64,000 nt of DNA from Allorhodopirellula solitaria. Lineage in GTDB: Bacteria; Planctomycetota; Planctomycetia; Pirellulales; Pirellulaceae. This document shows, one piece after another, positions 10,406 through 57,312 of this stretch. The stretch spans positions 77,036 to 141,035 of the forward strand of contig NZ_SJPK01000012.1 of the NCBI RefSeq assembly GCF_007859855.1. Direction: 5' to 3'. Every line of letters begins with the position of its first letter. Within the stretch, counting starts at the first letter, position 1. Made by a program: the position numbers and the translations under genes. The notes under the pieces are model-generated. The model did no database searches. It was not told where the DNA came from and was given only the letters and a program-made list of their open reading frames with translations.

Positions 10406-11862
10406 TTGATTTTTTCCCCTTCGGTCAGCGTGTCGATCCACTGCGCATGTTGATTCTTGATTTCGCGATATTCCGGTTGATCGGCCAGGTTGGTCCATTC
10501 GTTGGGATCTTCGGAATGATCGTACAGTTCTTCGGAGCCGTCTCGATAACGAATGTATCGCCACCGCTCGGACCGCACCGTGTGGTTGCCTGCTTTCGTT
10601 GATGTCAGGGCTGGCCGCGTCCATGTGGCCTGGGGGTTGGTCAACAGGTCGCGGAAACTTTCGCCCTCCAGCTGGTCGGGAGCTTCGATCTCACAAAGTT
10701 CGGTGAGCGTTGGAAAGATGTCAATCAATCCGACCGTCCGATCGCAGACCTCGCCTTCGGCAGAGAGTCCCGGGACGCGAACGGCTAGAAAGCTTCGCGT
10801 GGATTCTTCCCAGGGCATCCATTTCCGCCAGTGACGTTTTTCACCCAGATGCCAGCCATGGTCGGACCACAAGACCACGATGGTGTCATTGGCGTAGGAG
10901 CTGTTCTTTAAGTGCGAGAGCACCTGGCCGATGCAGTCGTCGGTCAACGCCACACAGGCGTGGTAGGCATGCACCAGCTCGCGACGGTAGGTGGGGCTGA
11001 ACTGGTCCACGGCATCGTCAGCGATCAATTCTTGGCGATCCAGAACCCAACGGCGCCCGATCTCCGGCACGTCGTCTAAGTCATTTTTGCGTACCTCAGG
11101 CATCGTCAGCTTGTCTCGCTCAAACTGGTCAAAGTACCGCTTCGGAGCAGTCATCGGCGTGTGTGGCTTGTAGAAACCCAGGGCCAGGAAGAACGGTTTC
11201 TGGTGATCCTTGTTCAACTGTTGCTTCGCCCAGGCTGCGATTTGCTCATCGGGCATCTCACCACGCTCGATATCCAGCGCCGCCCAAGCGAGCGAGTCTT
11301 TTGCCCGACCGCCGAACTTGTTGGCAAACTGCCGCCCATCGGGTGGTTCAGGTCCCCAGCGCAGAGTCTTCGGTCCGACTTCATCCCAGTAAGCTTTTTT
11401 GCCGTGATCATTGTGGTAGATCTTACCCATGCACATCGTGCGGTAACCGTGTTCACGAAACCACAACGGCATCTGCTCAGCCGACCGGTAGGCCGGGCGA
11501 GCCTGTTTCGAGCTGTTTCCGTAGACCCCTGTCGTTGACGCATACATGCCGGTCATGACCGAGGTCCGCGACGCATTGCAGAGCGCGACCTGGCAATGGG
11601 CGTTGCGAAACAGCGTACTCTGCTTCGCAAATTCGTCCATGTTCGGAGTCTGTGCGTCCGGGTTGCCGCCGAGGCAGCCCACCCAGTCGTTGAGGTCGTC
11701 GACAGCGATGAATAAAACGTTGGGCCGCTCACCAGTTGGATCTGATGCCGACACGGAATCCGAATCGGCAGCGAGACATTCACCGTGCCAGGCGATCGCC
11801 AGCAACAGCAGGGCTATCGTTCGGCAGGCCCGAAAACACTGAGAGAAAACCGCTATCATCAT
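10402..11862 (-). CDS. Sulfatase, iduronate-2-sulfatase-like
   Basis: 486 residues with a signal peptide (about 12-32). The metal strand NVLFIAVDDLNDW and the DLNDWVGCLGG.P.A.TPN.D motif are typical of the iduronate-2-sulfatase-like group. The formylglycine motif is C95-N-A-S-R, the C-x-A-x-R variant, so it still fits FGE processing. GKIYH, KPHTPMTAP, LWSDHGWHLGEK and a C-terminal ELYDHSEDPNEWTNLA block complete the fold. It lies 3 bp after the small lipoprotein gene and overlaps the next sulfatase by 4 bp. The three genes, with the DUF1559 gene upstream, form an operon-like run. Confidence 0.9.
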   Translation of the reverse strand: MMIAVFSQCFRACRTIALLLLAIAWHGECLAADSDSVSASDPTGERPNVLFIAVDDLNDWVGCLGGNPDAQTPNMDEFAKQSTLFRNAHCQVALCNASRTSVMTGMYASTTGVYGNSSKQARPAYRSAEQMPLWFREHGYRTMCMGKIYHNDHGKKAYWDEVGPKTLRWGPEPPDGRQFANKFGGRAKDSLAWAALDIERGEMPDEQIAAWAKQQLNKDHQKPFFLALGFYKPHTPMTAPKRYFDQFERDKLTMPEVRKNDLDDVPEIGRRWVLDRQELIADDAVDQFSPTYRRELVHAYHACVALTDDCIGQVLSHLKNSSYANDTIVVLWSDHGWHLGEKRHWRKWMPWEESTRSFLAVRVPGLSAEGEVCDRTVGLIDIFPTLTELCEIEAPDQLEGESFRDLLTNPQATWTRPALTSTKAGNHTVRSERWRYIRYRDGSEELYDHSEDPNEWTNLADQPEYREIKNQHAQWIDTLTEGEKIK

Positions 11863-24806: not shown

Positions 24807-26360
24807 TTAGTACTTGCCGTTGGTCCCAAACATTTCCTGCTTCGATGGCCGGGGGCGTTTTCGCACGCTGTGGTCGGGTTCCCCAGTTACGCGGTCGAAC
24901 TCGTCGGGAGTGCGTTTGCTCGGAAGATAGTCGTCGGTCTGTATCGACCATTCCTGAAGAGCCGATCGCAGCCGCGAATGGATCGCCGCGTAGGCGGGGT
25001 CGTCGATGCGGTTGTCCAGTTCACCGGGATCCCGCTGCAGGTCATACAGTTCCCACTTCGCGCGTGGGGCACGGAAACAGCTCTGTTGTTCAGGCGTGAG
25101 CGTCCCTTCAGCCTGGCGTTGGAGCATGTCCTGCCACGACAGGCCGCGACCAGCATCCGCCGAAGGCGTGGAAGGTAGATCCACGTAGTCGTTTCGAATC
25201 AGCTTGAACTGTTGATCGACCACGCACCTCGCATGGTCTTCGTAGTCGTGCCAATGGTCCTCGGCGAAGGCGTATCGGCGGTGCGATTGAGCAGGATCGG
25301 CGAGTACAGCAGCAAAGCTCTCGCCCTCGGTCGACAGCGCGTCCGAAGGCAAGCCAGCAATCTGCAGCAGTGTTGCCGCGATATCGACTGAACTCACGAT
25401 CGTCTCGGCGACGCCTCCCGGAGCGATCTCACCGGGCCACCGCACAATCCACGGTGTACGGATACCGCCATCGTAGAGCGTCGTCTTGTCGCGCGGGAAA
25501 GGACGGCCGTTGTCGCTGATGAACAAGACGATCGTATCATCGGCCACGCTCTGGGCTTCGAGCTCGTCGAGTACCTTGCCAACGTACCCATCGAGCCGTC
25601 CGATCTCATCGTAGTACAAACGCAAGTCCTCACGAACGTCCGGCGTGTCGGGCAAATGAGGTGGAACGATCACGTCGGAGAGTTGATGCGGGGGATCGAG
25701 AGCTCCGTCGTGATACTCACGGTGCGGGTCCAGAGACGCCAACCACATGAAGAACGGTTTGGACCGCTCGCGTTCCTGCAGAGCTCGCTCCCAATCCTCG
25801 CAACCACTCGGTTGCTTGGCGATCATCTGAGCTGGCTCGCCGTCTGCACTGCTTGGCAATACGAAGCCTGCCGTCGACGCCTCGTAGATTCGGTCAAAGT
25901 GGTCGCGGACGGCATCGCCCATGTGCCACTTCCCTGCCGCAGCGGTGTAGTAGCCAGATGATTGTAGCTTGCCCACAAACGTCGAGGTGTCCGCTGGGAT
26001 GGGCCAGTGCAACTGTTCGGCGCCGGTGTTGTGCGGGTACTTGCCGGTGATGATGCTCGCCCGTGAAGGGCTGCAGGAGTTCGTCGTCAGGTACGCGTGC
26101 TGAAATCGCAATCCCTCGCTGGCGAGCTGATCGATGTGAGGTGTCGCGATGGCGGGATGTCCGTAGGCGCCGCAATCATCCCAGTTCATGTCGTCGGCAA
26201 TGATCAACACGATGTTGGGCGGCTGCCTATCAATCGCCTCGACCGCGTTCGCGCTCGATCCCGACACCCCCACAGCGACGACAACCAGGCAACACAGTCG
26301 CCAGACGTCACGTGCTGCGAGGCGGTCTTGCTGTGTCGATTGCGATTGGATTCTGCTCAT
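24807..26360 (-). CDS. Sulfatase
   Basis: 517 residues from ATG 26360. An export signal (about 20-40) is followed by NIVLIIADDMNWDDCGAYG, the formylglycine motif C96-S-P-S-R, GKYPHNTG, GKWHMGD, and ISDNGRPFPRDKTTLYDGGIRTP with the second metal site. It resembles heparan N-sulfatase-like (S1_8) members by the DDMNWDDCG opening. The open frame extends 75 codons upstream into recQ; 26360 is taken because the signal peptide begins there and it clears recQ. It is not beside other polysaccharide genes, so it looks like a lone sulfatase. Confidence 0.88.
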   Translation of the reverse strand: MSRIQSQSTQQDRLAARDVWRLCCLVVVAVGVSGSSANAVEAIDRQPPNIVLIIADDMNWDDCGAYGHPAIATPHIDQLASEGLRFQHAYLTTNSCSPSRASIITGKYPHNTGAEQLHWPIPADTSTFVGKLQSSGYYTAAAGKWHMGDAVRDHFDRIYEASTAGFVLPSSADGEPAQMIAKQPSGCEDWERALQERERSKPFFMWLASLDPHREYHDGALDPPHQLSDVIVPPHLPDTPDVREDLRLYYDEIGRLDGYVGKVLDELEAQSVADDTIVLFISDNGRPFPRDKTTLYDGGIRTPWIVRWPGEIAPGGVAETIVSSVDIAATLLQIAGLPSDALSTEGESFAAVLADPAQSHRRYAFAEDHWHDYEDHARCVVDQQFKLIRNDYVDLPSTPSADAGRGLSWQDMLQRQAEGTLTPEQQSCFRAPRAKWELYDLQRDPGELDNRIDDPAYAAIHSRLRSALQEWSIQTDDYLPSKRTPDEFDRVTGEPDHSVRKRPRPSKQEMFGTNGKY

Positions 26361-26466
26361 GATTTGCGGGGCTGATTGCGGGCGACTCGGATGGGTTGAC
26401 TTTCTGCTCAAACAATCCGGCGGACGGGAGAAGCGCTGGCATCTGGAGGGGAAGCGGGCAGGTACC

Positions 26467-28689
26467 TCAGGCGTCGACTCGGTTTTGCCAACACGTGAAA
26501 ACGATACGGATCTCATCGCAACTGATCGGCGGATCGAGGGTTTGTTGGGATTGAACCGCTTCGAAGATCGGTTTGAGCCGGCCATCCTCGCTGGCGGGGA
26601 TCGCCGCTTCGATCAGCCGGATTCGCTCTGGGGAAACCCAGGCCGACGCGTCGGTAATCTCGGCGCTGCGGAGGTACTCGCTGAGGTAGCCACACACCGT
26701 GGACGAGGCTCGTCCCATTTTTTCGGCGACCTCGTCGATCGATATCCCTTTGGCGAACATCTCGTCCGCCTCCTGTTGGGCCATGGCTCCCTTGATACTT
26801 TTCGGCGGGGACGATGTGCTGACAGGCGTACTGGGTGAATCAGCCCCAGCGACATCGCGTGACAAATCGGTCTGTTGGCAATACGCGTCGATTTCTGTTA
26901 AGAAAATCTCGCCATACTCTTCGAGTTTGCGTTGGCCGATACCGCGGATGTCCCCTAGTCGGGCGATCGAAGTGGGACGGATCCGAGCCAGGTCACGGAG
27001 CACGGCATCTCCAAAAACAATGTAGGCGGGAACGCCGCGCTCGGTTGCCAACTCACTGCGTTTGGCACGCAGCGCATCGAAGAGTGCCCGGTCGACGCCC
27101 TCCCAAGAATCCACGGCCGGTGATTTGGCTGAGCGTCCGCCCGAGGAAGGGGCGGCGCGGGTCAGAGTGACGGTCCCCCGCCGGTGCAGTAGCTCCCGTC
27201 CGGCTGGGGTCAGTTGCAACACGTTGTACTCGCCGGTGCGTTGGAGAAAACGCTGCGAGACCAATTGTTCGATCCAAGTCCGCACGTTGGCAGCCGATTC
27301 ATTGCCGAGCAGGTTGTGGGTGCTGAGCTGATCGTGACCGGCGCGAGTGATTTTTTGGTCCCGGGATCCTGTCAGGACTTTGACGTTATAGGCGACCCCA
27401 AAACGTTCCTGCAGCCGCAACACATTGGAGAGAATCTTCTGTGACAAGGTGATCGGATCGTCGACCGTATCGAGTTCGCCCAAACAGACATCGCAGGCGT
27501 TGCAATTATCAACATCGAACTCTTGCCCAAAGTAGTTCACGATTGCTGCGTGCCGGCACTGCACGCCGGAACACAGCTCCGCCATGGCATTCACGTTTGC
27601 CATCGCTTCATCAAAGTTCGATCGGTCGCCCATCTCGAGGATGCGTTTCCAGGTCATCAGGTCGCCGCCGCTGTACAAGAGAATGCACTGAGACGCCAAT
27701 CCATCGCGCCCAGCGCGGCCGCTTTCCTGTTGGTAGTGCTCGATCGATTTGGGCATCCCGGCATGGATGACGAATCGAACATTCGATTTGTCGATGCCCA
27801 TTCCGAAGGCCACCGTGGCCACGATCACATCTACCTGTTCACGAATAAAGGCTTCCTGGTTGGCATGCCGGGTCACGTCATCGAGGCCGGCATGGTACGG
27901 CTTGGTTGAGATGCCTCTTGCCGCCAACGCCGCAGCGGTCTGCTCCACTTCCTTTCGCGTGATGCAGTACACGATTCCGGATTCGCCGGGGTGCTGTTCG
28001 ACGACGCCCATGATCTGCTGCAGCGCGTTATCGCGGCGGAGCATGCGATAGGTAAGGTTCGGGCGGTCGAAACTGCCGACCAACATCTGAGGTTGGCGAA
28101 GCTCGAGTTGTTCGGCGATGTCCTCACGCACTCGCTCGGACGCCGTTGCAGTGAAGGCGTGCACCGATGCCTCGGGAAACCGCTGTTTTAAAACCCGCAG
28201 GCCACGGTACTCCGGACGAAAATCATGCCCCCAATTACTCACACAGTGAGCTTCGTCGATGGCGAAGAATGAGATCGGGATCGACGTGAGAAAATCGAGC
28301 GTGCGTGGGGAGAGCAGTCGTTCGGGTGCGAGGTAGAGCAAGCGAATCTCGCCCCGTCGAATCCGAGCGGCCGTCTCGCGTTTCTGATCCTCGCTCTGGG
28401 TGCTGTTGACTAACGCCGCCGCAACACCGTTGCTCTGCAACGCGTCGACTTGATCCTTCATCAGCGAGATCAGTGGCGAGACGACCACCGCCATCCCGTC
28501 GCGGACCAGAGCCGGGACTTGATAGCACAGCGATTTGCCTCCGCCCGTCGGTAGCACCACCACGCTGTCGCGGCCCGCGATCACATCGCCGACCGCTTCC
28601 TCCTGTAAGGGGCGGAAGTCGTCAAAGCCCCAGACCTGAGCAAGAATCTCCCGGGCGGAGGAGGATTCGTCTTGAGTTGAATGAACCAT
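26467..28689 (-). CDS. recQ: ATP-dependent DNA helicase RecQ
   Basis: 740 residues; a 3'-5' superfamily 2 helicase for recombination and repair. Walker A LPTGGGKS (Lys52), DEAH at 145-148 and the SRGVGRxGR-type motif VI (QESGRAGRDG) are intact. The RQC zinc region has CRHAAIVNYFG and CNACDVC. An HRDC domain lies around 515-600. Beyond it is an extra 130-residue C-terminus with a GISIDEVAEKMGRASSTVCGYLSEYLR helix-turn-helix, as in RecQ proteins with a C-terminal HTH. All catalytic motifs are present. The gene lies between the sulfatase and the cysteine-cluster gene on the same strand. Confidence 0.95.
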   Translation of the reverse strand: MVHSTQDESSSAREILAQVWGFDDFRPLQEEAVGDVIAGRDSVVVLPTGGGKSLCYQVPALVRDGMAVVVSPLISLMKDQVDALQSNGVAAALVNSTQSEDQKRETAARIRRGEIRLLYLAPERLLSPRTLDFLTSIPISFFAIDEAHCVSNWGHDFRPEYRGLRVLKQRFPEASVHAFTATASERVREDIAEQLELRQPQMLVGSFDRPNLTYRMLRRDNALQQIMGVVEQHPGESGIVYCITRKEVEQTAAALAARGISTKPYHAGLDDVTRHANQEAFIREQVDVIVATVAFGMGIDKSNVRFVIHAGMPKSIEHYQQESGRAGRDGLASQCILLYSGGDLMTWKRILEMGDRSNFDEAMANVNAMAELCSGVQCRHAAIVNYFGQEFDVDNCNACDVCLGELDTVDDPITLSQKILSNVLRLQERFGVAYNVKVLTGSRDQKITRAGHDQLSTHNLLGNESAANVRTWIEQLVSQRFLQRTGEYNVLQLTPAGRELLHRRGTVTLTRAAPSSGGRSAKSPAVDSWEGVDRALFDALRAKRSELATERGVPAYIVFGDAVLRDLARIRPTSIARLGDIRGIGQRKLEEYGEIFLTEIDAYCQQTDLSRDVAGADSPSTPVSTSSPPKSIKGAMAQQEADEMFAKGISIDEVAEKMGRASSTVCGYLSEYLRSAEITDASAWVSPERIRLIEAAIPASEDGRLKPIFEAVQSQQTLDPPISCDEIRIVFTCWQNRVDA

Positions 28690-47297: not shown

Positions 47298-47513
47298 TCA
47301 ACGAACATTACCGTGATCTTCTTGGCCTCGATGATTCTTGGACAGTGTCCAAGACTTGGATCTGCGTTTGGCGCAGTCGACCGAAACGACACCAAAGTGA
47401 GAGGGACCGACCGCCTCGACTCGCTGCTGAATCACCCCAGCTGGCTTGCCGATGTAACGGGCCTGATTGGATTTTGACGATTTTGACGAACGTTTCTTGG
47501 TGGCGATTGCCAT
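47298..47513 (-). pseudogene. IS110-family transposase N-terminal fragment
   Basis: ATG at 47513 with an AAGGA site 9 bases upstream. The residues KPAGVIQQRVEAVGPSHFG, then VVSVDCAKRRSK, match the start of IS110-type transposases and carry the first Asp of their RuvC-like DEDD site. After CAKRRSK the resemblance ends and 18 unrelated residues lead to the stop, so only about 52 residues of an about 400-residue transposase remain. It overlaps the end of the truncated sulfatase frame. Confidence 0.55.
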
Positions 47514-48034
47514 ATCGGAGTTCCTTGATTGAAGGGAAAGTGAATTCCTTCAATGAAAGCACTCAGAATGCGCCCCTGGTAGTTTTTTAGGCTAACTTGG
47601 GGACATACCAGGCATGGCTCTCGTATCCAATGATCGTTCAAAAATGCGTCCCTGACGAACAAACGCTCGCCAGGGACCGACAACACCATTGTCGTACCGC
47701 TTTTGCAGGGAAACGCTGGCGACCGAGATATCCCTTGCCAAGCCAGCACCTCTGCAGAGCTCGGCTCCGTTTCTCCCGGCAGTGCCAGTCTAACATTGAT
47801 AATCACATCCCACAAATCAATCCTTGGATACGGGAGCCATGCCTTGAAAACCTCGGGCGCACGCTTCCGTCGGATGAGCCGACTTTGGTCCAAGACTCCC
47901 ATGATGAACAAGACGTTCGGCGGCGAGTCGGTTTCTTCTGCACACACCGCTGGCATCAGCGAGAGCGTGAACAGCAACGTCGCGAGTGTCCGCATGACTT
48001 GGTTGCACCGAGAGAGCGTCGACTTATTGATCAT
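47432..48034 (-). pseudogene. Truncated sulfatase (N-terminal fragment)
   Basis: The ATG at 48034 overlaps the stop of the GH110-sulfatase gene in an ATGA, so translation would be coupled. The first 55 residues are a clear sulfatase beginning: signal peptide MRTLATLLFTLSLMPAVCA, then EETDSPPNVLFIM in place of the usual NVLFI.VDD. After that (VLDQSRLIRRKRAP) the metal-site Asps, the C-x-P-x-R motif and the rest of the enzyme are missing. The remaining 145 open codons match no sulfatase. An IS110 fragment sits at its 3' side, suggesting loss by insertion and deletion. Confidence 0.6.
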
Positions 48035-51000
48035 TGGACGCCTGAGTATTGCTGCACGCTCATCTTCTGTTCCCATTGGATCAGCTCGTCAGTGAGTTGG
48101 CGAACTACCGATTGGTTTTCACTCGCGACGTCGTGTTTCTCAGAGACATCTTTCACCACGTCGTAAAGCTCTACTTTGCCGCTTCGGTAAGCCAACATGT
48201 TCCAGTCGCCCTTCCGAACGGACGCATAAAGATCCTGGTAGGCGCGGTAGCCAAACAGTGGACTCGAGCGTTCCAGTGAATGCTTTCCATTCAAAAGCGG
48301 GGCCAGTGAAACGCCATCAAGATCGCTGTGAGATTCAGGATCGCCGCCCGCAATTTCAACGATGGTGGGGAAAAGATCGGTCGATTGAACCGGTATGTCG
48401 GATTTCGCGCCAGCATCCGTTTTGCCAGGCCAATGAATCATCATGGGAACGCGGACTCCGCCTTCGCAGAGCGTGTCGACTCGTTTATTGCCGCGAAGTG
48501 GAAGGTTCTCGTACCAGCTTCCTTGATCCGAAAGGAACACGAGGATCGTTTCCCTCTCGATTCCCTTACTTGAAATCGCCTCTCGAATCCTGCCGACCGA
48601 CTCGTCGACGGCTTTGACTTGGGCTGCATAGATCGCGTCTGATTCCGCGTAACCCTTGTCCAAAAAATATTCGACTAGGTCGGGCCGTCCAATCGGTGGC
48701 CGATGGACACCGTAGTACCACAGCGAAAGCATGAATGGCTGATCACGCTCGTATTCGGATAGGAACCGGACTGATTCGTCGGTGAGCACATCCGTGAGAT
48801 GTTGGCTTTTGGCGTCCGTGAGTACGTCGGTGTTTTTGAAGAATGGCGAGTTGTATGACTTCGGGTGGCCAAAGTTTGTGGTTCCAAACTGCGAGTCAAA
48901 GCCTTGATGAACAGGATGGTACGGCTCGTGACCTAAATGCCACTTGCCGACGAATTGGTTGTAGTAGCCCAGTTCGCGGAGTGCTTCGGCATAGGTTGTG
49001 TGTTCAAGCGGCAGCCAGTTGCGACAGGGGAACCTGGCTGGATCACCTTCCCAGTGGTTGTACTCGACATCGGTGCGTCCCCACGTGTCGAAATCCTCGT
49101 TCTTCGATCCTGTCGGAATGTGCCGAACCATCTGTAGTCGCGCCGGATGTTGCCCGGTCAGTAGCGTCGCTCGACTTGGACTGCAGGTTGGACTGGCGAC
49201 GTAAGCTCGTTGAAAATCCAGCGACTGGCCCGCCAATCGGTCAATGTTTGGTGTTTCAAATTTTGCGTTGCGATATCCCAGGTCGTTCCAACCCAAATCA
49301 TCGACGAACAGCAAAACGATGTTCGGATTCTTCGCCTTCGCTTGGGCATTGTCATCCGCAGACGGCGATGCAGCATCGATCCCTTGGTTCGCATCAAGTT
49401 GCACATCCTCGCTGTTCTCGGAAGAGATGACGCTGAGGTTTCGATCGAATCCGTCCGCATCATTGCTGTTGATCGTGACGTTTTGACAATACTCCAGGTC
49501 AATCGACGGCCCCTCGTTCGCTCCGGGGTAGTCGTCGTTCAAAACGACCTGGTTCCCAGTGATGGTGAGTCCTGACACGGAGGCCGCTTTGGCGATCAAT
49601 CCATTGAATCCAGAAATGGTATTGTCTGTGAAGTGAATGTTTCGGTGGTACCTTTGGTCACCCCAACGTTGTTCGGACGTGAGCAGCGGCGATGCCAGCA
49701 ACGGATAGCATTGATTGACCGAAAAGCCAATGTTCTCGAAGCGATTGCGCCGAATGGTGACATCGTCGACCGCGCCTGACTCGTACCACTTGTTATTGTC
49801 GCCTTCGATCAGGATGCCGTGCATCTGTGACGAGAATAGGTTGTCTTCAATCAGGACCTTTCCCTTCGTCGTCACCAAGATGCTGCGAGCCCGGTTTTCG
49901 CGGATCGTGGTGTTGCGAACGACAAGATCGGGATACCACGTCAAATTCTCGACTGAGAGGGCAACGTCGGGCAATTCGTCGGGAAGGTCGGCAAGCGTGA
50001 TAGCGAAGCGGTGTTCGTTGAGCGGTTGAACAGCCTCGATCGTGGTTTCATGAAAAGGCAATAACGTCTCGCGTGACAACAAGGCGACCTTGTCGCCCGG
50101 TTGAGCAAAGGTGAGTCCCCACTGTTGAAAGTGACTGATCTCGCACAGCAGCCTTCGCTCGCCAAGACCCTCGATGACTTTGACGTACGCACCATGAACG
50201 TTGATGCCATCGTCGAGCATGTGCTCGAAGAGACAATTTTCGATCCGCACCGTTCCTTTGCAGCCGATGAAGTGAGTGGCATCGGCACGTGTTGCCGCCA
50301 ATCGTTCCTCATTGGATGTCACGACCATGCCGTCGAGGGAGATGTTGTCGGTTCGTTCGACGATCAGCCCCATTCCGCCGGCTTCGTGGACCGTGACGTT
50401 TTCAATCCGCAGATCATTCGAGTTGGTGACATGAATCGCAGGGCAAAGGCGACTGGTCGGGTGGACGCCGTAGACGACCAGGACGCTGCCCACCGGCGGT
50501 GGCTGCTTGAAGCCCTTCTCGATTGCAAAACGACCCGGTCCGATGGCAGTGAATTTCGCTTTCTTTTCATTCAAACGATATTCGTTGGTTCGATAGATCG
50601 GCGAATTCGTTTTAGGGTCGAAGACGATGTTGGAACCGACGGGATCGTCTTGACCGTATCGGTGAAAGCGGATCTCGCCGCCCGCAATCGTGTAGGGATA
50701 GGCTTCGGCATCGGTCTCGACCACGCAGCGTTTCTCCGCGGCGTCGCTCCCGACGACATGAAGTTCGGCGTGAAAGGACTGAGTCCAGTCGATCGTGAAG
50801 TTTTTCAAGGTGACTTCGCTGCCACCGTCGACGGTGAACGGCACCATGCGTCCATGAAATAGAAACGTGGAGCCGCCGCCATCGATGGTCAGTGAATCAC
50901 GACCAAATATTGGAAATCCGAACCGCTTCAGCCCGTTGTCGTGATTGGCGACCGCTCGGTAGCTCTCGAAGGCGTTGTCGGGGTGAAAGTCATAGACACC

Positions 51001-51204
51001 CTTGGGAAATGAGAGCGTGACGTCCTTGCGGTCCCGCACTGATTCCAGCAGATCCCTGACTGCGAGCGTCACATCTCTGCCAGGTACGATGCCGTGGTCG
51101 GCGACGTCAATGGTTTCTGCGGCGACTGTTGACGTGGCGGCTGTTGACATGGCTAAGCAAGCCAACCCGAGAATGAGAACTCTCAATAAATCGTTGCAGT
51201 TCAT
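48031..51204 (-). CDS. Fusion of GH110-like beta-helix glycosidase and sulfatase
   Basis: 1057 residues from ATG 51204, signal peptide 1-29. Residues 30-605 are a right-handed beta-helix related to GH110 alpha-1,3-galactosidases: RAVANHDNGLKRFGFPIFG, LTIDGGGSTFLFHGRMVPF and LKNFTIDW, then ADATHFIGCKGTVRIENCLFEHMLDDGINVHG, which has the Asp-rich stretch where GH110 enzymes carry their catalytic acids. After a 20-residue linker, residues 627-1057 are a full sulfatase: NIVLLFVDDLGWNDLGY, formylglycine motif C674-S-P-S-R, GKWHLGHEP, FLSDQGSWYENLPLRG. Such an enzyme could remove both sulfate and terminal alpha-galactose from carrageenan-like chains. The single frame is intact. The 90-bp gap upstream holds no gene. 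Confidence 0.85.
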   Translation of the reverse strand: MNCNDLLRVLILGLACLAMSTAATSTVAAETIDVADHGIVPGRDVTLAVRDLLESVRDRKDVTLSFPKGVYDFHPDNAFESYRAVANHDNGLKRFGFPIFGRDSLTIDGGGSTFLFHGRMVPFTVDGGSEVTLKNFTIDWTQSFHAELHVVGSDAAEKRCVVETDAEAYPYTIAGGEIRFHRYGQDDPVGSNIVFDPKTNSPIYRTNEYRLNEKKAKFTAIGPGRFAIEKGFKQPPPVGSVLVVYGVHPTSRLCPAIHVTNSNDLRIENVTVHEAGGMGLIVERTDNISLDGMVVTSNEERLAATRADATHFIGCKGTVRIENCLFEHMLDDGINVHGAYVKVIEGLGERRLLCEISHFQQWGLTFAQPGDKVALLSRETLLPFHETTIEAVQPLNEHRFAITLADLPDELPDVALSVENLTWYPDLVVRNTTIRENRARSILVTTKGKVLIEDNLFSSQMHGILIEGDNNKWYESGAVDDVTIRRNRFENIGFSVNQCYPLLASPLLTSEQRWGDQRYHRNIHFTDNTISGFNGLIAKAASVSGLTITGNQVVLNDDYPGANEGPSIDLEYCQNVTINSNDADGFDRNLSVISSENSEDVQLDANQGIDAASPSADDNAQAKAKNPNIVLLFVDDLGWNDLGYRNAKFETPNIDRLAGQSLDFQRAYVASPTCSPSRATLLTGQHPARLQMVRHIPTGSKNEDFDTWGRTDVEYNHWEGDPARFPCRNWLPLEHTTYAEALRELGYYNQFVGKWHLGHEPYHPVHQGFDSQFGTTNFGHPKSYNSPFFKNTDVLTDAKSQHLTDVLTDESVRFLSEYERDQPFMLSLWYYGVHRPPIGRPDLVEYFLDKGYAESDAIYAAQVKAVDESVGRIREAISSKGIERETILVFLSDQGSWYENLPLRGNKRVDTLCEGGVRVPMMIHWPGKTDAGAKSDIPVQSTDLFPTIVEIAGGDPESHSDLDGVSLAPLLNGKHSLERSSPLFGYRAYQDLYASVRKGDWNMLAYRSGKVELYDVVKDVSEKHDVASENQSVVRQLTDELIQWEQKMSVQQYSGVQ

Positions 51205-51293: not shown

Positions 51294-51704
51294 TCATGCG
51301 TCAAACAGTTCATCGATGGTTCCGGTCGAATCGCCAAAAGAGGCCGCGTTGGCGTCTTCCGGAACTGGATTGCCCGCCAGCTCTTCGACCGGCTTCCCCG
51401 TTAACTTGCCTCGATTGACAAAGATGCGTTCCAACTCACCTTCAAACAGAATTCCGTTGCCGTGTGCCAGGTGCGACGAATCGACATCGCACAACGCGAC
51501 CAGATCGGCAAACGTCTGACCGACCGGAGCCGTGCGAGTGTCATTGCCGCCAACCCCAATCAATGCAAATCGTCGTCGCTCGTTGGGCGACGCTGCCAAT
51601 GCTTGACGGGTTGGTGCAGTCCAAGGAATCAGTGAGCCAGCCTGAATTGCGCTCGCGGCTTTTAAGAATCGTCGGCGGGTGAGGCAATGTTGGAAATCAT
51701 TCAT
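51294..51704 (-). pseudogene. Internally deleted Gfo/Idh/MocA oxidoreductase
   Basis: 136 residues from ATG 51704 (a GTG at 51737 that overlaps the upstream sulfatase stop is also possible). A Tat signal (LTRRRFLKAAS) is followed by the Rossmann start RRRFALIGVGGNDTR and DLVALCDVDSSHLA. The next residues, HGNGILFEGELERIFVNRGKLTGKPVEEL, are from the far C-terminal part of planctomycete Gfo/Idh/MocA proteins. The central about 250 residues, with substrate residues, have been lost in frame. The product is unlikely to be an enzyme. It is coupled with the sulfatase and lies 90 bp before the GH110-sulfatase gene. Confidence 0.65.
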
Positions 51705-51733: not shown

Positions 51734-53291
51734 TCACTTCTCGCGAACTTTCGGTTTTTTCGTAAACGGGATCTCAGGGCGTTTCATGTCGCTGTTGACA
51801 TCACGAAACACCCATGGCTCCCAAGTCTTCCGCACTTCTCGCCACTGCTGAAGCGTTCGTGTTGGGTACCAAGGAGGAACTCCATTGTCCAGGAAATCAT
51901 ATTCGCCTGCGTGCTCGACAGACCACTGACCGACCGTTTGATCCGCTGTGCGTTCAGCAGGAAAGACGTTCTCGGCACGGAATGCTTCGGAGACTCCCTG
52001 GTCACGGATGACTTCGTCTCGCCAACGATTGAGTTCCGCGAGCAATTTCGACTTCACGTCAGCGTATTTTGGATCGTCAGCGACATTGTGGACTTCGTGT
52101 GGATCGTCGCGCAGATCAAACAACTCGATAGGTGGCTTCGTGGGTGACATGAACGCGGCTTGTTCCGGTGTGAGCTTCCCTTCCAAATTCAAGACGTTTA
52201 ATTCGGCCAGCGGCGGATACGCACCCTCTTTGTAGAAACTGAATTGGCAGTAAGCCCGCTCCGGCATCAGATTCAAAATAAGCTTGTGGTCCTTTGACCG
52301 GATGCTTCGCATCGCGTCGTGCGTCGTATCCATCTTGTCACGGGCGGCAAAGGTGTACTGACGACTTTTTACGTCATCGCTGAATAGACTCTTTCCGTGA
52401 AGTGGCACCGGAGGAGTCACCCCGGCTGCTTCGAGGACTGTCGCACAGATATCAATCGACATCACCAGGTCGCCATTCACCTGCCCAGGCTGAACCTTAC
52501 CGGGCCAACGCATGACCATCGGTATGCGAGTTCCTTCGTCATACAGAAATTGCTTGCCACGAATGTGGCAGCGTCCGTGGTCGCCGATGAAGAACACAAT
52601 CGTGTTGTTGGCCAGGCCCTCGTCATCGAGACGTTTCAAAATCGCTCCCACTTCACGATCGACCAGTTGCATTTGCTCGAGCCCATTGGCCCAGTCGCGT
52701 CGAATGAAAGGCGTGTCGGGATAGTAGGGCGGAAGTTCAACGTCCTCTATATCAATGGGGCGTTCGGGGTCGCGTGCCCACTTGCGGTGAGTGCCGCCGA
52801 ACGTGATGCGAGCGAAAAACGGTTGATTGGCGTCACGATTCTTCCAGTCCTTCACATCCATGAACAACTCTTCCTTTTGATCGGGCAGGAAGTTGCAGTC
52901 CGTCTTCCAGCTCATCAAAACGGTGTAGTACCCTGCGTCGGCAAGCAGTTGCGGGATCGGCCGAATTCCGTAGGGTAGCGGCTGCTTGTCTTCGGTTCGG
53001 TGTTGGTGCGCACCGATATAGTTCTGATGAAACCCCGTCATCATCGCTGATCGAGAGGTCGAGCAAACGGGCGAGGTCGTGAAGGCCCGTTCATATCGAA
53101 TGCCTTGGGAAGCAAGCCTGTCGACGTTTGGCGTCGCGATCCCCTTCGTGCCGTAGCAAGACAGATCGGGTGACCAGTCCTCAATCGTGATCCACAAAAT
53201 GTTCGGTCGCTCCGCGACTGAGGTGTTCAGCTCCCCCCCCAAGCAGAAACAAAGCGACGGAAGCAATTAGGCGAATAGATTGCGTCACCAT
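51734..53291 (-). CDS. Sulfatase with frameshifted signal peptide
   Basis: The intact frame (from TTG at 53266, 510 residues) covers the whole enzyme: PNILWITIEDWSPDLSCYG, formylglycine motif C68-S-T-S-R (C-x-T-x-R variant), FFIGDHGRCHIRGK and the C-terminal ELFDLRDDPHEVHNV block. It lacks a signal peptide. An ATG at 53291, with AAGG 8 bases upstream, opens MVTQSIRLIASVALFLLGG, a normal signal peptide, in a frame one base off. The two frames meet at a G8 tract (53233-53240); with G7 they join as LLGGELNTSVAERPN. Either a sequencing/assembly error, a recent mutation or phase variation. Stop overlaps the next gene region. Confidence 0.8.
53233..53240 (-). repeat. G8 homopolymer tract at sulfatase frameshift
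   Basis: Eight consecutive C on the + strand (G on the coding strand). One base fewer would fuse the signal peptide encoded from 53291 to the sulfatase frame. Runs of this length are typical sites of slipped-strand change and also of sequencing error. Confidence 0.8.
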
Positions 53292-53465: not shown

Positions 53466-56006
53466 ATGGCGAACCACCGTTGCCCGTCGGACCATTGTGG
53501 TCGAAAAATTGACCTGCCACCTCATTGTTCCCATCGAATCGTGCTCAAACCGCTTGAAGTGACTGAACCTACCAACTTCAAAGAAGCCTTCAGCTTCTCA
53601 TTCGCGACGCTGCGCGGTATTTGCTGCTTGCTGCTGTTTGGGGTGGCGGCCAATGCGAACGCTGCCGGGCCGCCTGCAAGCATTGCGGAATTTTTAGATT
53701 TGAATTGCACTGGGTGTCACGACGCTAGCACGCACGAAGGTGGCCTGGACCTGGATTCGCTCACTCTGACGCTCGAAGATCCCGACAATTTTCACCTTTG
53801 GCAGCGAGTGTTCGATCGCGTTGGAACGGGCGAGATGCCGCCGGACGAGGATCTCGACCAAGAGGAAACCACACCATTCCTTGCGAGTCTCCACCAACGA
53901 TTGAAAGCAACCGATTCTGCTCGGATTGCATCCGAGGGACGTGTGTCTGCAAGACGACTGACACGCTCTCAGTACGAACGCAATGTGTGCGAATTGCTGG
54001 CCATCGACATTCCGCTCCGCGATTTCCTACCTGAGGAGTCGTATACCAGAATCTTCGACACGGTTTCTAAAAGCCAACAGGTTTCTGATCACTCGATGGC
54101 AGCTTACCTGCAAGCTGCCGATGCAGCGCTCGAGGCCTCATTCAACCGACTGCTGACGGAAACGGAACCACTGAACGTTCGCTTGGACTGGAATCAATTA
54201 CGACGTGATGAAGAGCGTACAGATCGTGAACCGGAGGGACGCCCTCAACATCAAGACATTGTTTCCTGGTCGACGCGGAAGAACTTCTATGGACGGATGC
54301 CGGCCACCAGCGTCCCCACGACGGGTCGCTACCGAGTCCGGATGAGGGTTCGTTCAGTTCACCCGCCGGATGCTGGTCGCGTTTGGTGCAGCGTCCAAAG
54401 TGGTGTTTGCAATGCCACGGCTTCAACGATGTATTGGGTTGGAAGCTTCGAGGCGACTGGCGAAACCAGCGAGTACGAATTGGAAGCCTGGATTCGCGAA
54501 GGACATATGCTGCGCGTCGTTCCGAATGACCGCGGTCTTCGCCAAGTTCCCGTGCCGATGATCGACGATCCAGCGGGAACCGTCGAGCCGCTGGGAATGC
54601 CGGGTGTCTCGATCAAGTGGATCGAGATACGACGCGTTGAGGCCGATCGTGCCGATGTTCAGCGAGCGTTGCTTGGCGACCTAGAGTTGCGCCGGATCGC
54701 GACAGACGTCTCGGAAGATGATCAACACGAACCGCAACGATTTGAGATCGAATCGAAAAACCCTGAACAGGATTTACGCAATACGGTTGAGTCGTTTGCC
54801 CAGCGAGCGTTTCGTCGACCCGTCACGCAAGCCGAATTGAGGCCCACGATTGAGTTCGCGTTGAAGCGACTGCAGGACGAGGGCAGCATGCTCGATGCTT
54901 TGCGAGCGGCGTACCGAACGATCCTTTGCTCGCCACAATTTCTCTACTTCGAGGAAGCACCCGGTGTACTCGACGACTACGCGTTGGCGAATCGGCTTAG
55001 TCATTTCCTGTGGGGAATCGGACCTGACGAAGAGCTACGGCAGTGGGCTGCGGCGGGCCGGCTCAGTGATCCAGCCGAGCTGCGCCGTCAGACGGATCGG
55101 TTGCTTGACGATTCTCGATCCAAGATTTTTGTTGAAGAGTTCACCGACCAATGGTTGATGTTGCATGAAATCAATAGCACGACGCCGGACAGCAAGCTGT
55201 ATCCGGAGTACGACGATGTGCTTCATCATACGCTGCCAATGGAAACCTACGCGTTCGTTCACGGACTGATCGAGCATGACCTGCCTGTCCGCAACATCGT
55301 GGATTCCGATTTTACTTTCCTCAACAGCAGGCTGGCCCGCCACTACGACATCGAGTGGCCAGGTGGGATGGGAATGCAGCGAGTGAAACTTGGTCCGCTG
55401 AGCCGACGCGGTGGCATCATCACACACGCGAGTGTGTTGAAGGTAACGGCGAATGGAACCACCACGTCTCCGATCATTCGCGGCGTCTGGATGCTCGAGA
55501 GAGTGATGGGAGAGCATATTCCTCCGCCGCCAGCGAATGTGTCAGCGGTCGAACCTGACATCCGCGGTGCGACGTCGATCCGTGATCAGATTGATAAGCA
55601 CAAGAGTCTCGATAGCTGCGCTGCCTGCCATGTTAAAATTGATCCTCCAGGTTTCGCATTGGAAAGCTACGATGTGATCGGCGGGTGGCGTGAGCGTTAC
55701 CGAGCGGTTTCAAGCGGCAAGGGCAAGAAGTGGGTGGATGGAATGCCAGTCGACCCAAGTCATGAATTTGCCAGCGGAGAGTCGTTCGACAGTATCGAGG
55801 GCTTGAAACAGATTGTCAGCTCGCGACCAGAGCAACTCGCCAGGGCCTTGGCGACGCATCTGGCAACTTATTCGACGGGAGCCGCACCCACGTTTGCGGA
55901 TCGCGAGACGCTTGATGCGATCGTTGCCGCCACCGAGTCCACGAACTACGGCGTGCGGTCGCTGATACACGAAGTTATTCAGAGTTCACTGTTCCAACAG
56001 AAGTAG
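53466..56006 (+). CDS. Planctomycete cytochrome-type protein, DUF1587-1592-1588-1585
   Basis: 846 residues. After a hydrophobic export segment (LLLFGVAANANAAG) comes a PSCyt1-like haem motif CTGCH near residue 80, then DUF1587 (RRLTRSQYERNV.ELLAID), a beta-rich insert (about 270-400), DUF1595/DUF1592 (AQRAFRRPV, LRAAYRTILCSPQFLYFEEA, LSHFLWG..PD.EL) and DUF1588/DUF1585, with a second CAACH (residue about 720) before KIDPPGFALESYD. The role is unknown; electron transfer linked to a periplasmic oxidoreductase is likely. The start is uncertain: GTG 53559 would give a proper signal peptide. Followed by DUF1552, as usual for the family. Confidence 0.85.
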   Translation: MANHRCPSDHCGRKIDLPPHCSHRIVLKPLEVTEPTNFKEAFSFSFATLRGICCLLLFGVAANANAAGPPASIAEFLDLNCTGCHDASTHEGGLDLDSLTLTLEDPDNFHLWQRVFDRVGTGEMPPDEDLDQEETTPFLASLHQRLKATDSARIASEGRVSARRLTRSQYERNVCELLAIDIPLRDFLPEESYTRIFDTVSKSQQVSDHSMAAYLQAADAALEASFNRLLTETEPLNVRLDWNQLRRDEERTDREPEGRPQHQDIVSWSTRKNFYGRMPATSVPTTGRYRVRMRVRSVHPPDAGRVWCSVQSGVCNATASTMYWVGSFEATGETSEYELEAWIREGHMLRVVPNDRGLRQVPVPMIDDPAGTVEPLGMPGVSIKWIEIRRVEADRADVQRALLGDLELRRIATDVSEDDQHEPQRFEIESKNPEQDLRNTVESFAQRAFRRPVTQAELRPTIEFALKRLQDEGSMLDALRAAYRTILCSPQFLYFEEAPGVLDDYALANRLSHFLWGIGPDEELRQWAAAGRLSDPAELRRQTDRLLDDSRSKIFVEEFTDQWLMLHEINSTTPDSKLYPEYDDVLHHTLPMETYAFVHGLIEHDLPVRNIVDSDFTFLNSRLARHYDIEWPGGMGMQRVKLGPLSRRGGIITHASVLKVTANGTTTSPIIRGVWMLERVMGEHIPPPPANVSAVEPDIRGATSIRDQIDKHKSLDSCAACHVKIDPPGFALESYDVIGGWRERYRAVSSGKGKKWVDGMPVDPSHEFASGESFDSIEGLKQIVSSRPEQLARALATHLATYSTGAAPTFADRETLDAIVAATESTNYGVRSLIHEVIQSSLFQQK

Positions 56007-56016
56007 CGACCGAAAC

Positions 56017-57312
56017 ATGACCCATTTTGCAAAGAACAGCTCGCTATCCCGGCGCAAACTGATCCGCGGTAGTGCAGGCGTGTCGCTGGCTCTTCCTTGG
56101 CTCAGCTCGATGGTTCCGGCGTTCGGCCGAGAAGCCTCTTCGGCCGAGTCGCCGCCACGTCGATTCGTGGGGATCAGTAACGCGTTAGGATTCCACGGTC
56201 CGTTTCTGTTCCCAAAGAAATCCGGGCGCGACTACGAAACGACGCGATACTTGAAGCCGATCGAGGACCTACGTGAGCATTTCACCATTGTGTCGGGAGC
56301 CTCGCACCCGGGCGTGGGCGGTGGCCATAAGGCGGAGCCGTGCATCTTGTCGGCAGCACCCTACAGCGGATCGAACTTTCGCAACACGATTTCGTTAGAC
56401 CAAGTCATGGTCCGGGAACTCGGGGGCGAGACCCGTTACCCGTCGCTGGTGTTAAGTGCCGACGGAACGACGAGTACTTCGTATACGGCGAACGGGTCGA
56501 TGATTCCGCCGCAAAACTCTCCTCAGCGACTCTTCGCTCAAATGTTCACGGACGACACACCCGCGTCCCGTATCGCTCAAAAGCAGCGGATCCGCGAAGG
56601 CCGCAGCATCATGGATCTTGTCGGCGACGAAGCGAGGGCAATGCAGCGTCGGCTTGGCCCAGGCGATCGCGATAAGTTGGACGCCTACTTTACCAGCGTT
56701 CGTGATCTTGAACGTCGCCTCGTCGTGAATCAGGGCTGGGCGGAGCGTCCCAAACCCAAAGTGGACGCAAAGGCACCGGCTCCCGTTCGTGACAACTCGG
56801 ATACGATCGCGATGCAAACGGCAATGCACGACGTCATTTTTCTGGCATTGCAAACCGATAGCACACGCTTCATCACGATGCACACTGCCGGGAACGGCCA
56901 ACGGATTCCGCTCGATGGCGTCGAGCAGGGATATCACCAGCTCAGTCATCACGGGCGCGATGAAGAAAAGATCGCGCAGCTAGCCATCATTGAAGAAGCC
57001 CAGATGAGATCTTGGGGCGGTTTAGTCCGACGGCTTCATGAGACACAGGAACGCGATGGAACGCTGCTCGATCACACGATGTTGTTACTCACCTCGAATC
57101 TCGGTAACGCTTCGGCGCACGACACCAAAAACATGCCAGTCGTCGTTGCCGGCGGCGGATTCAAGCACGGCCAACATCTTGCCTTCGATCGCACCAACAA
57201 TTATCCGCTGCCCAACCTCTACACTTCGATGCTTCAGCGTCTCGATCTCGAAGTCGACGCATTCGCTAGCGCCACCGGAACGATGCGTGGTCTTGAGATG
57301 TTGTCTTCATGA
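56017..57312 (+). CDS. DUF1552 protein (Tat-exported)
   Basis: 431 residues. Twin-arginine signal SRRKLIRGSAGVSLALPWL, then the DUF1552 body: RFVGISNALGFHGPFLFPKKSG, LRPIED.REHFTIVSG, SHPGVGGGH, and a C-terminal LLTSNLGNASAHDTKNMPVVVAGGGFKHGQH. DUF1552 almost always follows a DUF1592-type gene and is thought to be its periplasmic partner; no reaction is proven. It begins 10 bp after the preceding stop. The stop overlaps the ECF sigma start by 4 bp, which ties the pair to a regulator. Confidence 0.88.
   Translation: MTHFAKNSSLSRRKLIRGSAGVSLALPWLSSMVPAFGREASSAESPPRRFVGISNALGFHGPFLFPKKSGRDYETTRYLKPIEDLREHFTIVSGASHPGVGGGHKAEPCILSAAPYSGSNFRNTISLDQVMVRELGGETRYPSLVLSADGTTSTSYTANGSMIPPQNSPQRLFAQMFTDDTPASRIAQKQRIREGRSIMDLVGDEARAMQRRLGPGDRDKLDAYFTSVRDLERRLVVNQGWAERPKPKVDAKAPAPVRDNSDTIAMQTAMHDVIFLALQTDSTRFITMHTAGNGQRIPLDGVEQGYHQLSHHGRDEEKIAQLAIIEEAQMRSWGGLVRRLHETQERDGTLLDHTMLLLTSNLGNASAHDTKNMPVVVAGGGFKHGQHLAFDRTNNYPLPNLYTSMLQRLDLEVDAFASATGTMRGLEMLSS

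What the first reader, a model, noticed from the sequence alone, without database searches (positions are those of the whole stretch)
48031..51204. Single-chain GH110-like glycosidase fused to a sulfatase
Residues 30-605 read as a GH110-type beta-helix and 627-1057 as a complete sulfatase with C674-S-P-S-R. The two activities would act on neighbouring bonds of a sulfated galactan (an alpha-1,3-galactose end and its sulfate), so one protein could couple desulfation and cleavage. I am not aware of this architecture being described. It is the strongest candidate for a novel enzyme in the window.
Basis: partly seen in the sequence, partly recalled or inferred. Interest (0 to 1): 0.78.

Follow-up and report, generated by a model that had tools for sequence, protein, structure and literature searches.

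The report
Alpha-galactosidase fused to a sugar sulfatase
One protein of a marine planctomycete joins an enzyme domain of the kind that clips off terminal galactose with one of the kind that strips sulfate from sugars; relatives carry the same pairing, which suggests the two steps are coupled, although fusions of this general kind were already known.

Summary
GH110: PDB 9beh, E 1.7e-97; all 11 catalytic and subsite residues named for PdGH110B are kept. The sulfatase is nearest S1_16 (9fo1, E 3.3e-79) but sits in a clade with Trp79 changed to His695 and Ca-ligand Asn264 to Gln894. Not an artefact: 5 of 241 family genomes carry the fusion. The sulfatase clade tracks close GH110: 14 of 16 genomes versus 8 of 225; without the fused five, 9 of 11. 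In another genome it is fused to a GH97 alpha-galactosidase-type domain, and two solo forms look as if they lost a glycosidase. The upstream gene is nearest S1_8 galactose-2-O-sulfatases. Best reading: a secreted bifunctional exo-enzyme on a carrageenan-like galactan, removing one sulfate and the terminal alpha-1,3-galactose. Sulfate position and order are unresolved; no activity was measured. GH-sulfatase fusions are published as a kind; I found no GH110 case. New variant of a known kind.

The parts
51118..51204 (-). Signal peptide (residues 1-29); cleavage site judged by eye
   Evidence: translation; AF2 helix 4-22 and block pLDDT 63-72 for residues 1-30; no signal-peptide predictor was run
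49390..51117 (-). GH110 alpha-1,3-galactosidase-type beta-helix domain (residues 30-605)
   Evidence: Pfam; PDB 9beh E 1.7e-97; Foldseek TMt 0.92
50281..50283 (-). D308, aligned with base candidate Asp321 of PdGH110B
   Evidence: alignment; invariant in the 14 GH110 rows of A1
50209..50214 (-). D331-D332, aligned with general acid Asp344 and base candidate Asp345 of PdGH110B
   Evidence: invariant in A1
49333..49389 (-). Linker (residues 606-624), variable in length and sequence between species
   Evidence: linker identity 24-38%, domains 68-87%, in the five pairs compared; AF2 pLDDT under 50 at 615-624
48034..49332 (-). S1-type sulfatase domain (residues 625-1057), nearest to subfamily S1_16
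   Evidence: Pfam; PDB 9fo1 E 3.3e-79; Foldseek
49183..49185 (-). C674 of C-S-P-S-R, the residue to be converted to formylglycine
   Evidence: FGE-sulfatase (PF03781) matches in the own genome
51734..53266 (-). Upstream same-strand sulfatase gene, nearest S1_8A then S1_8B (galactose 2-O-sulfatases of a lambda-carrageenan cascade); likely partner, separate protein
   Evidence: PDB 9bb9 E 2.4e-96 and 9bbd E 2.7e-81; relatives of 68-73% identity lie in GH110 loci L082, L060, L081, L107

Best explanation
A secreted bifunctional exo-enzyme for a carrageenan-like sulfated galactan. The GH110 half is an inverting exo-alpha-1,3-galactosidase whose -1 pocket is of the PdGH110B type, i.e. it wants a terminal alpha-galactose without sulfate. 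The sulfatase half, matured at C674 to formylglycine, removes one sulfate ester at the non-reducing end of the same chain. A flexible linker keeps both sites on one molecule, so the product of one site is at hand for the other. Either the sulfatase prepares the end for GH110, or it clears the beta-galactose that GH110 uncovers; the order is open. The upstream S1_8-like enzyme would remove another sulfate (2-O). Shown here by sequence: architecture, kept catalytic residues, conservation of the fusion, co-occurrence, a second fusion of the same sulfatase clade to a GH97 alpha-galactosidase-type domain. Inferred: secretion, both activities, substrate, order, any gain from coupling.
For: All 11 PdGH110B residues (catalytic, -1 subsite, and +1 Arg451) named in PMC7939477 (sections 6-7 read) are kept: N87, R252, D308, D331, D332, N335, R438, R440, E467, W473, E475, the same in 5 of 5 fused proteins. 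E467 matches GH110B E480, which blocks a 6-sulfate pocket; GH110A has Arg (PMC12549532 passages). Sulfatase D635, D636, C674, H756, H780, H834, D893, K907 kept in 5 of 5. In the published cascade GH110A and GH110B released sugar from lambda-carrageenan oligosaccharides only after S1_8B treatment (PMC12549532). Fusion in 5 of 241 family genomes. Sulfatase clade in 14 of 16 genomes with close GH110 and 8 of 225 without, Fisher p 2e-15; without the fused five 9 of 11 versus 8 of 225, p 2e-10; by genus 5 of 5 versus 4 of 63. GH97 fusion in G621, nearest PDB 3a24 alpha-galactosidase, E 6e-51. 12 of the 76 non-fused loci hold a sulfatase with the clade signature. Upstream S1_8-like gene; S1_15-like gene upstream of the fusion in L054, 92% and 83% identical genes in L055 and L056.
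Against: No activity was measured. Lambda-carrageenan carries 2- and 6-sulfates, whereas the S1_16 enzymes described in the papers seen remove 4-sulfate from Gal/GalNAc or, in 6ust, 6-sulfate from GalNAc, so the fused sulfatase does not fit the published lambda cascade (S1_8 and S1_15). Trp79 and Asn264 of 9fo1 are His and Gln here and the sugar contacts N369/Q370 are not kept, so specificity, and in principle activity, may differ. 11 of 16 genomes with close GH110 have it unfused; of the 9 of these with the sulfatase, it lies within 20 kb of a GH110 in three (G561, G566, G574) and elsewhere in six. 8 of 22 sulfatase-clade genomes have no close GH110 and 2 of 16 GH110 genomes lack the sulfatase. 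The thresholds (E 1e-100; the strong GH110 group) were chosen after seeing hits, only 5 and 7 candidates per genome at most were scored, and relatedness is not corrected beyond a genus count. The upstream gene is nearest S1_8A, described as specific for the free monosaccharide, with S1_8B second. AF2 pTM 0.64 gives no reliable mutual placement of the two sites.
Confidence: 0.68

Rival explanations
1. Cleave-then-desulfate: GH110 first removes an unsulfated alpha-galactose, and the tethered S1_16-like sulfatase then removes the 4-sulfate from the newly exposed non-reducing beta-galactose, preparing it for a separate beta-galactosidase (mu/nu- or hybrid-carrageenan type substrate; substrate structures recalled).
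For: AMOR_S1_16A (9fo1), the nearest solved relative, desulfates non-reducing-end G4S of kappa-carrageenan oligomers in exo mode (PMC11760155 passages); a GH110B-type -1 pocket needs an unsulfated alpha-Gal (PMC7939477).
Against: The clade lacks the Trp that stacks on the S1_16 sugar (H695) and the N369/Q370 contacts; whether the GH110 +1 site tolerates a 4-sulfate is unknown.
Confidence: 0.35
2. Desulfate-then-cleave: the sulfatase removes a sulfate from the terminal alpha-galactose itself, which then fits the GH110 -1 pocket.
For: In P. distincta U2A, GH110A and GH110B act on lambda-carrageenan oligosaccharides only after S1_8B desulfates the terminal alpha-Gal, GH110B best after S1_15B too (PMC12549532); the sulfatase clade was joined to two unrelated alpha-galactosidase-type families, GH110 and GH97, which points to the alpha-galactosyl end as common substrate.
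Against: Terminal alpha-Gal of lambda-carrageenan has 2- and 6-sulfates, removed by S1_8 and S1_15 in the published case, not by S1_16 relatives; the upstream S1_8-like gene may already offer the 2-O step.
Confidence: 0.42
3. Passive fusion: the two domains are active but simply co-expressed and co-exported as one chain; tethering gives dosage, not coupling.
For: Linker is variable and floppy; 11 of 16 genomes with close GH110 have it unlinked; solo sulfatases that seem to have lost a glycosidase remain intact frames.
Against: Pairing of one sulfatase clade with two different alpha-galactosidase-type families; similar conservation of both halves in the fused species.
Confidence: 0.3
4. One half is catalytically dead and serves as a binding module.
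For: Sulfatase Ca ligand Asn is Gln and Trp79 is His.
Against: Nucleophile and the other catalytic residues checked are kept in 5 of 5 fused proteins; the signature is shared by the whole clade, solo sulfatases included (37 of 228 sulfatase domains, duplicates counted), as for a working variant.
Confidence: 0.08

Closest known systems
PdGH110A/PdGH110B, GH110 alpha-1,3-galactosidases of the Pseudoalteromonas distincta U2A lambda-carrageenan cascade (9beh, 7jw4)
   Same: fold, catalytic Asp triad, the named -1 residues and +1 Arg451 (E467 as GH110B E480); S1_8-like gene next door in the window; L054 and L055 also have a GH110A-like gene
   Different: those are single-domain proteins; 27-33% identity over the model; here a sulfatase is attached
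AMOR_S1_16A exo-kappa-carrageenan 4-O-sulfatase (9fo1) and other S1_16 (6ust, 7oz9, 7oza)
   Same: 9fo1 and 6ust are the nearest sequences and sulfatase folds; Cys nucleophile, Lys and His residues kept
   Different: 35% identity to 9fo1; Trp79 to His695, Ca ligand Asn264 to Gln894, N369/Q370 contacts not kept; fused to a glycosidase
Published sulfatase-glycosidase fusions: multi-domain sulfatases of Planctomycetes P1/P2 (PMC4807772, passages), S1_7-GH10, S1_7-GH32, S1_15-GH29 (PMC6388578, passages)
   Same: same general architecture, same phylum or superphylum
   Different: other or unnamed glycosidase families; GH110 is not named in the passages seen
GH97-sulfatase of genome G621 (L201:6559-9885) and sulfatase-GH97 of G574 (L230:5999-9394), found here
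   Same: alpha-galactosidase-type domain with sulfatase in one chain; L201 has the same sulfatase clade (71% identity)
   Different: GH97 instead of GH110; L230 has another sulfatase, at the N-terminus

Membership tests
GH110 | sequence match to GH110 proteins over the domain | tested here: met
   9beh E 1.7e-97 over 42-594; PF23763, PF23764 over cut-off; no CAZy/dbCAN model was available
GH110 | three-Asp inverting catalytic centre and -1 subsite | tested here: met
   11 of 11 residues kept, 5 of 5 fused proteins
GH110 | parallel beta-helix fold of solved GH110 | tested here: met
   AF2 pLDDT 93.3, Foldseek 9beh TMt 0.92
[quoted passage not shown]
   no assay
S1 formylglycine sulfatase | C/S-x-P/A-x-R motif, Ca-binding Asp residues, Lys/His of the sulfate site | tested here: met
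   C674-S-P-S-R; D635, D636, D893, H834, K907; K907 placed by the A3 alignment, as HMMER put the Lys of 9fo1 in an insertion
S1 formylglycine sulfatase | fourth Ca ligand Asn (His in some) | tested here: not met
   Gln894, shared by the clade rows of A3; a variant not named in the passages seen of PMC11760155
Sulfatase subfamily S1_16 | nearest relatives are S1_16 members | tested here: met
   9fo1 and 6ust are the top two PDB sequence hits and the top sulfatase folds
Sulfatase subfamily S1_16 | Trp79 and two His of the 0 subsite | tested here: not met
   the two His are kept (H756, H780) but Trp79 is His695; a review puts the Trp in 37% of S1_16 sequences (PMC10154612 passage), so not decisive
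Sulfatase subfamily S1_16 | SulfAtlas assignment | not testable with these tools
   SulfAtlas models not available; I call it S1_16-like
Lambda-carrageenan cascade | S1_8 2-O-sulfatase and S1_15 6-O-sulfatase near GH110 | tested here: inconclusive
   S1_8-like gene, but no S1_15 identified, beside the fusion in the window (the window's other three sulfatases were not typed); S1_15-like in L054 with close relatives in L055, L056, where S1_8 was not sought
Lambda-carrageenan cascade | GH150 lambda-carrageenase in the genome | not tested
   no GH150 query at hand; a PMC4807772 passage reports lambda-carrageenase in R. sallentina, a PMC6262041 passage GH150 with GH110 in Rhodopirellula sp. SWK7

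The most novel reading that the evidence does not exclude
The sulfatase belongs to a distinct clade (His695, Gln894) with a sulfate specificity not yet described, which has been attached to, and cut loose from, two unrelated alpha-galactosidase families (inverting GH110, retaining-type GH97), so that desulfation and alpha-galactoside cleavage are coupled within one molecule: a swappable desulfation module for alpha-galactan breakdown.
Probability: 0.4. Interest if true: 0.68.

Novelty: new variant of a known kind. Interest (0 to 1): 0.52.

Why it matters
If the two sites cooperate, the protein is a natural test of whether tethering a sulfatase to an exo-glycosidase speeds sulfated-galactan breakdown, which in the published lambda-carrageenan cascade needs ordered steps by separate enzymes. 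The partner swap (GH110, GH97) points to the substrate of a sulfatase clade for which I know of no measured activity, and gives a handle on what the many planctomycete sulfatases do.

Tried and rejected
(a) Artefact reading (two genes joined by a sequencing error): rejected, four other genomes carry the fusion. (b) Simple descent from one fusion: the five fused GH110 domains are not one clade (AU p 0.0068), while the five GH110-fused sulfatase halves are not rejected as one (p 0.111); one early fusion with later losses, or repeated fusion, both remain. Both trees warned of long branches (L136, L003, L004; distant rows, and the chosen outgroup was not one side of a branch). (c) Filing as S1_16: not done, because of Trp79 and Asn264. 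(d) The sulfatase-like stub at 47432-48076: no Pfam match, and its first 60 residues matched only themselves in my ORF set; left unexplained. (e) dN/dS: of ten pair-by-domain computations one gave a value (GH110 of L054/L055, 0.056); nine failed numerically. (f) Sulfatase clade across the phylum: 2 of 382 genomes, own included, at most 4 candidates per genome scored; no further fusion. (g) L202 shows no trace of a glycosidase. (h) Rows: eight loci that repeat genomes taken from the genome search were left out of both trees (L090-L093, L099, L101, L113, L115); the sulfatase tree took BLAST bits over 290 plus L002-L004, the GH110 tree profile E under 1e-220 plus L121 and L125. (i) In one search, G537 has two shorter GH97 pieces, one with three in-frame TGA, and G495, G450, G410 have 35-40% matches; none of these four is in the count of ten. 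(j) No paper search named GH97.
Full report
1. What is there. The open frame at 48031-51204 on the minus strand gives 1057 residues ending at a stop; a longer start at 51297 (1088 aa) is also open, but the shorter one begins with a good signal peptide by eye. Pfam finds GLAA-B barrel domains I and II, Beta_helix, Sulfatase (627-953), SGSH_C (913-1046) and the related Phosphodiest, all over their cut-offs, and NosD below its cut-off. Against PDB sequences, residues 1-605 hit 11 distinct sequences at E up to 1: nine GH110/alpha-galactosidase sequences, best 9beh GH110A, E 1.7e-97 over 42-594, and two weak ones (Cag7/CagY, E 0.0068). The sulfatase half hits 78 sequences at 1e-10, best 9fo1 (S1_16 kappa-carrageenan sulfatase, E 3.3e-79), then 6ust. 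An AF2 model from 47 aligned window and locus proteins has mean pLDDT 93.3, pTM 0.64 and a break at 615-624; Foldseek finds GH110A for one half (TMt 0.92) and 9fo1 for the other (TMt 0.82).

2. Are the active sites intact? PdGH110B residues named in PMC7939477 (sections 6 and 7 read) map by the alignment to N87, R252, D308, D331, D332, N335, R438, R440, E467, W473, E475: 11 of 11 identical, and identical in the five fused proteins. D308, D331 and D332 are among the invariant columns of 14 GH110 rows. The +1 residues Lys195, Lys207 and Arg208 were not mapped. E467 corresponds to GH110B E480, which blocks a 6-sulfate, where GH110A has R460; E480 is held by D518, for which this protein has Ser/Pro at 505-506 (PMC12549532 passages; alignment), so the 6-sulfate inference is not tight. 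The second GH110 of L054 and L055 has the Arg. In the sulfatase, D635, D636, C674, H756, H780, H834, D893 and K907 are kept; Trp79 of 9fo1 is H695 and Ca-ligand Asn264 is Q894 (9fo1 numbering from PMC11760155 passages). Among 228 sulfatase domains collected, 37 (duplicates counted) carry both RHI and SDQG; they are exactly the 37 best BLAST matches to the fused sulfatase. N369/Q370 of 9fo1 fall on a conserved GYRAYEDLY-type stretch here, so sugar recognition probably differs. FGE-family matches are in the own genome.

3. Is the fusion conserved? In 241 genomes of the family, 28 match the GH110 half at E 0.001; in 16 of them the best match has 59% identity or more, in the rest 35% or less. Five of the 16 are fused: window, G399 (L054; contig length equals Aporhodopirellula aestuarii, L092), G394 (L055), G403 (L056; equals Rhodopirellula sallentina SM41, L113) and G562 (L080; equals an uncultured Pirellulaceae MAG, L093). 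In the genus, 5 of 13 genomes have a GH110 match and 4 of these 5 the fusion. A scan of frames of 700 aa or more (224 frames from 243 sequences held) found the GH110-sulfatase chain in these five genomes only; several loci hold only 1.5 kb of flank, so cut frames could be missed. Between the window and L054 or L080 the GH110 half is 68-70%, the sulfatase half 68-70% and the linker 24-38% identical. In a phylum sample, 23 of 392 genomes match the GH110 half.

4. The same sulfatase without GH110. Of 14 genomes chosen by me (11 with unfused close GH110, 3 without), 9 of 11 and 0 of 3 hold a stand-alone orthologue at 57-64% identity, the next paralogues being at 44% or less (E 1e-70). In the family 22 of 241 genomes have the clade (E 1e-100). 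Overlap with close GH110: 14 of 16, against 8 of 225 (Fisher p 2e-15); leaving out the five fused genomes 9 of 11 against 8 of 225 (p 2e-10); by genus 5 of 5 against 4 of 63 (p 1e-5). In a phylum sample it occurs in 2 of 382, own included. Of the 76 non-fused loci, 12 hold a sulfatase with the signature on the fetched DNA, 11 of them from Bacteroidota to judge by the organism names, where the genes are neighbours and not fused. In the nine unfused Pirellulaceae genomes that have it, it lies within 20 kb of a GH110 in three and elsewhere in six.

5. A second partner. In G621 the same sulfatase (71%) is the C-terminal part of a 1108-aa protein (L201:6559-9885) whose N-part is GH97_N, GH97 and GH97_C, nearest 3a24 and 5e1q (alpha-galactosidase; 5e1q is titled retaining), with the Asp kept that is Gly in the 5e1q chain. 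A stand-alone sulfatase in G618 (L203), 94% identical to it, has similar upstream DNA and signal peptide (84 bp, 83%) joined directly to the same linker and sulfatase (1342 bp, 92%): the GH97 is missing between them. In G582 (L204) the solo sulfatase starts with a signal peptide and a stretch like the last GH110 coil and linker (score 94 against L080, best of 300 shuffles 53; above all shuffles for 7 of 8 GH110s, not L056; tblastn E only 0.088). So these two solo forms look like fusions that lost their glycosidase; for L203 an insertion in L201 is not excluded. L202 shows no trace. In G574 a GH97 relative is fused to another sulfatase at its N-terminus (L230). GH97 of this type is in 10 of 241 genomes as a long match of 61% or more; 9 of these 10 also have close GH110. 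The window's genome has none at E 1e-60.

6. Trees. The sulfatase tree (36 rows) puts all six fused sulfatases and three solos (L202, L203, L204) in one clade (100/97); one clade of the five GH110-fused is not rejected (p 0.111), one clade of all six is (p 2e-5). In the GH110 tree (46 rows) the five fused domains do not form one clade (p 0.0068): unfused L081 is sister to the window's. Number and direction of fusion events are open.

7. Surroundings. The upstream same-strand gene 51734-53266 is nearest S1_8A (9bb9, E 2.4e-96), then S1_8B (E 2.7e-81) and S1_8C (E 4.5e-54). In the lambda-carrageenan cascade S1_8B takes the 2-sulfate off the terminal alpha-Gal before GH110, while S1_8A is described as specific for free G2S (PMC12549532, section 6 and passages). 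Relatives of 68-73% sit in other GH110 loci. In L054 the gene upstream of the fusion is S1_15-like (6s20, E 4e-157), with close relatives upstream in L055 and L056. Published work places GH110 and lambda-carrageenase GH150 in one locus of Rhodopirellula sp. SWK7 (PMC6262041 passage) and reports lambda-carrageenase in R. sallentina (PMC4807772 passage). I did not test GH150.

8. Mechanism. Best supported: two exo-acting sites on one secreted chain, both at the non-reducing end of a carrageenan-like galactan. GH110 needs an unsulfated terminal alpha-galactose (published for PdGH110B; residues kept here). Whether the sulfatase works before it (on the alpha-Gal) or after it (on the uncovered beta-Gal, as 9fo1 does on G4S) cannot be decided from sequence.

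9. Known or new. GH-sulfatase fusions are published for Planctomycetes (34 and 21 multi-domain sulfatase genes estimated in two strains, most often with glycoside hydrolase and hypothetical domains; PMC4807772) and Kiritimatiellota (GH10, GH32, GH29; PMC6388578). No paper on a GH110-sulfatase fusion appeared in my ten searches of the held open-access library (searches returned no paper). Of the 14 papers that hold both GH110 and sulfatase I opened ten, two with whole sections and the rest by passages; none of what I saw describes such a protein, and four were seen as listing only. Supplementary tables, where such a protein could be listed, were not available, and most subscription papers are not held. 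Hence: new variant of a known kind.

Noticed in passing
window 47432-48076 (-): ORF right after the fusion begins with a signal-peptide-like stretch and SPPNVLFIM, as a sulfatase would, then nothing recognisable; perhaps a gene remnant. No Pfam match.
   Followed up: partly
L230:5999-9394 (-): Sulfatase (N-terminal) fused to a GH97 domain 74% identical to that of L201, in the genome whose contig length equals Planctomycetes bacterium CA13.
   Followed up: partly
L201:2455-4899 (+): Partial sulfatase domain fused to a PhoD-like phosphatase.
   Followed up: no
L136:7700-11290 (+): 1196-aa frame with two GH110 domains in tandem, uncultured Alistipes.
   Followed up: no
L061:5597-9832 (-): 1411-aa frame with GH110 at its C-terminal end and about 840 residues of unidentified kind before it.
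   Followed up: no
L084:12182-15409 (-): 1075-aa frame with an N-terminal sulfatase and about 500 further residues, near an unfused GH110.
   Followed up: no
window 53466-57312 (+): Pair of genes divergent from the sulfatases: planctomycete cytochrome/DUF1592 protein and DUF1552 protein; proteins of both kinds also lie upstream of the sulfatase in L203.
   Followed up: no
window 8948-10624, 10402-11862, 24807-26585 (-): Three further sulfatase frames in the window; the genome gives 178 matching pieces to the fusion protein, nearly all of those listed to its sulfatase half.
   Followed up: no
L241 (G000:C5:97686-98447): FGE-sulfatase domain match inside a 1790-aa open frame.
   Followed up: no
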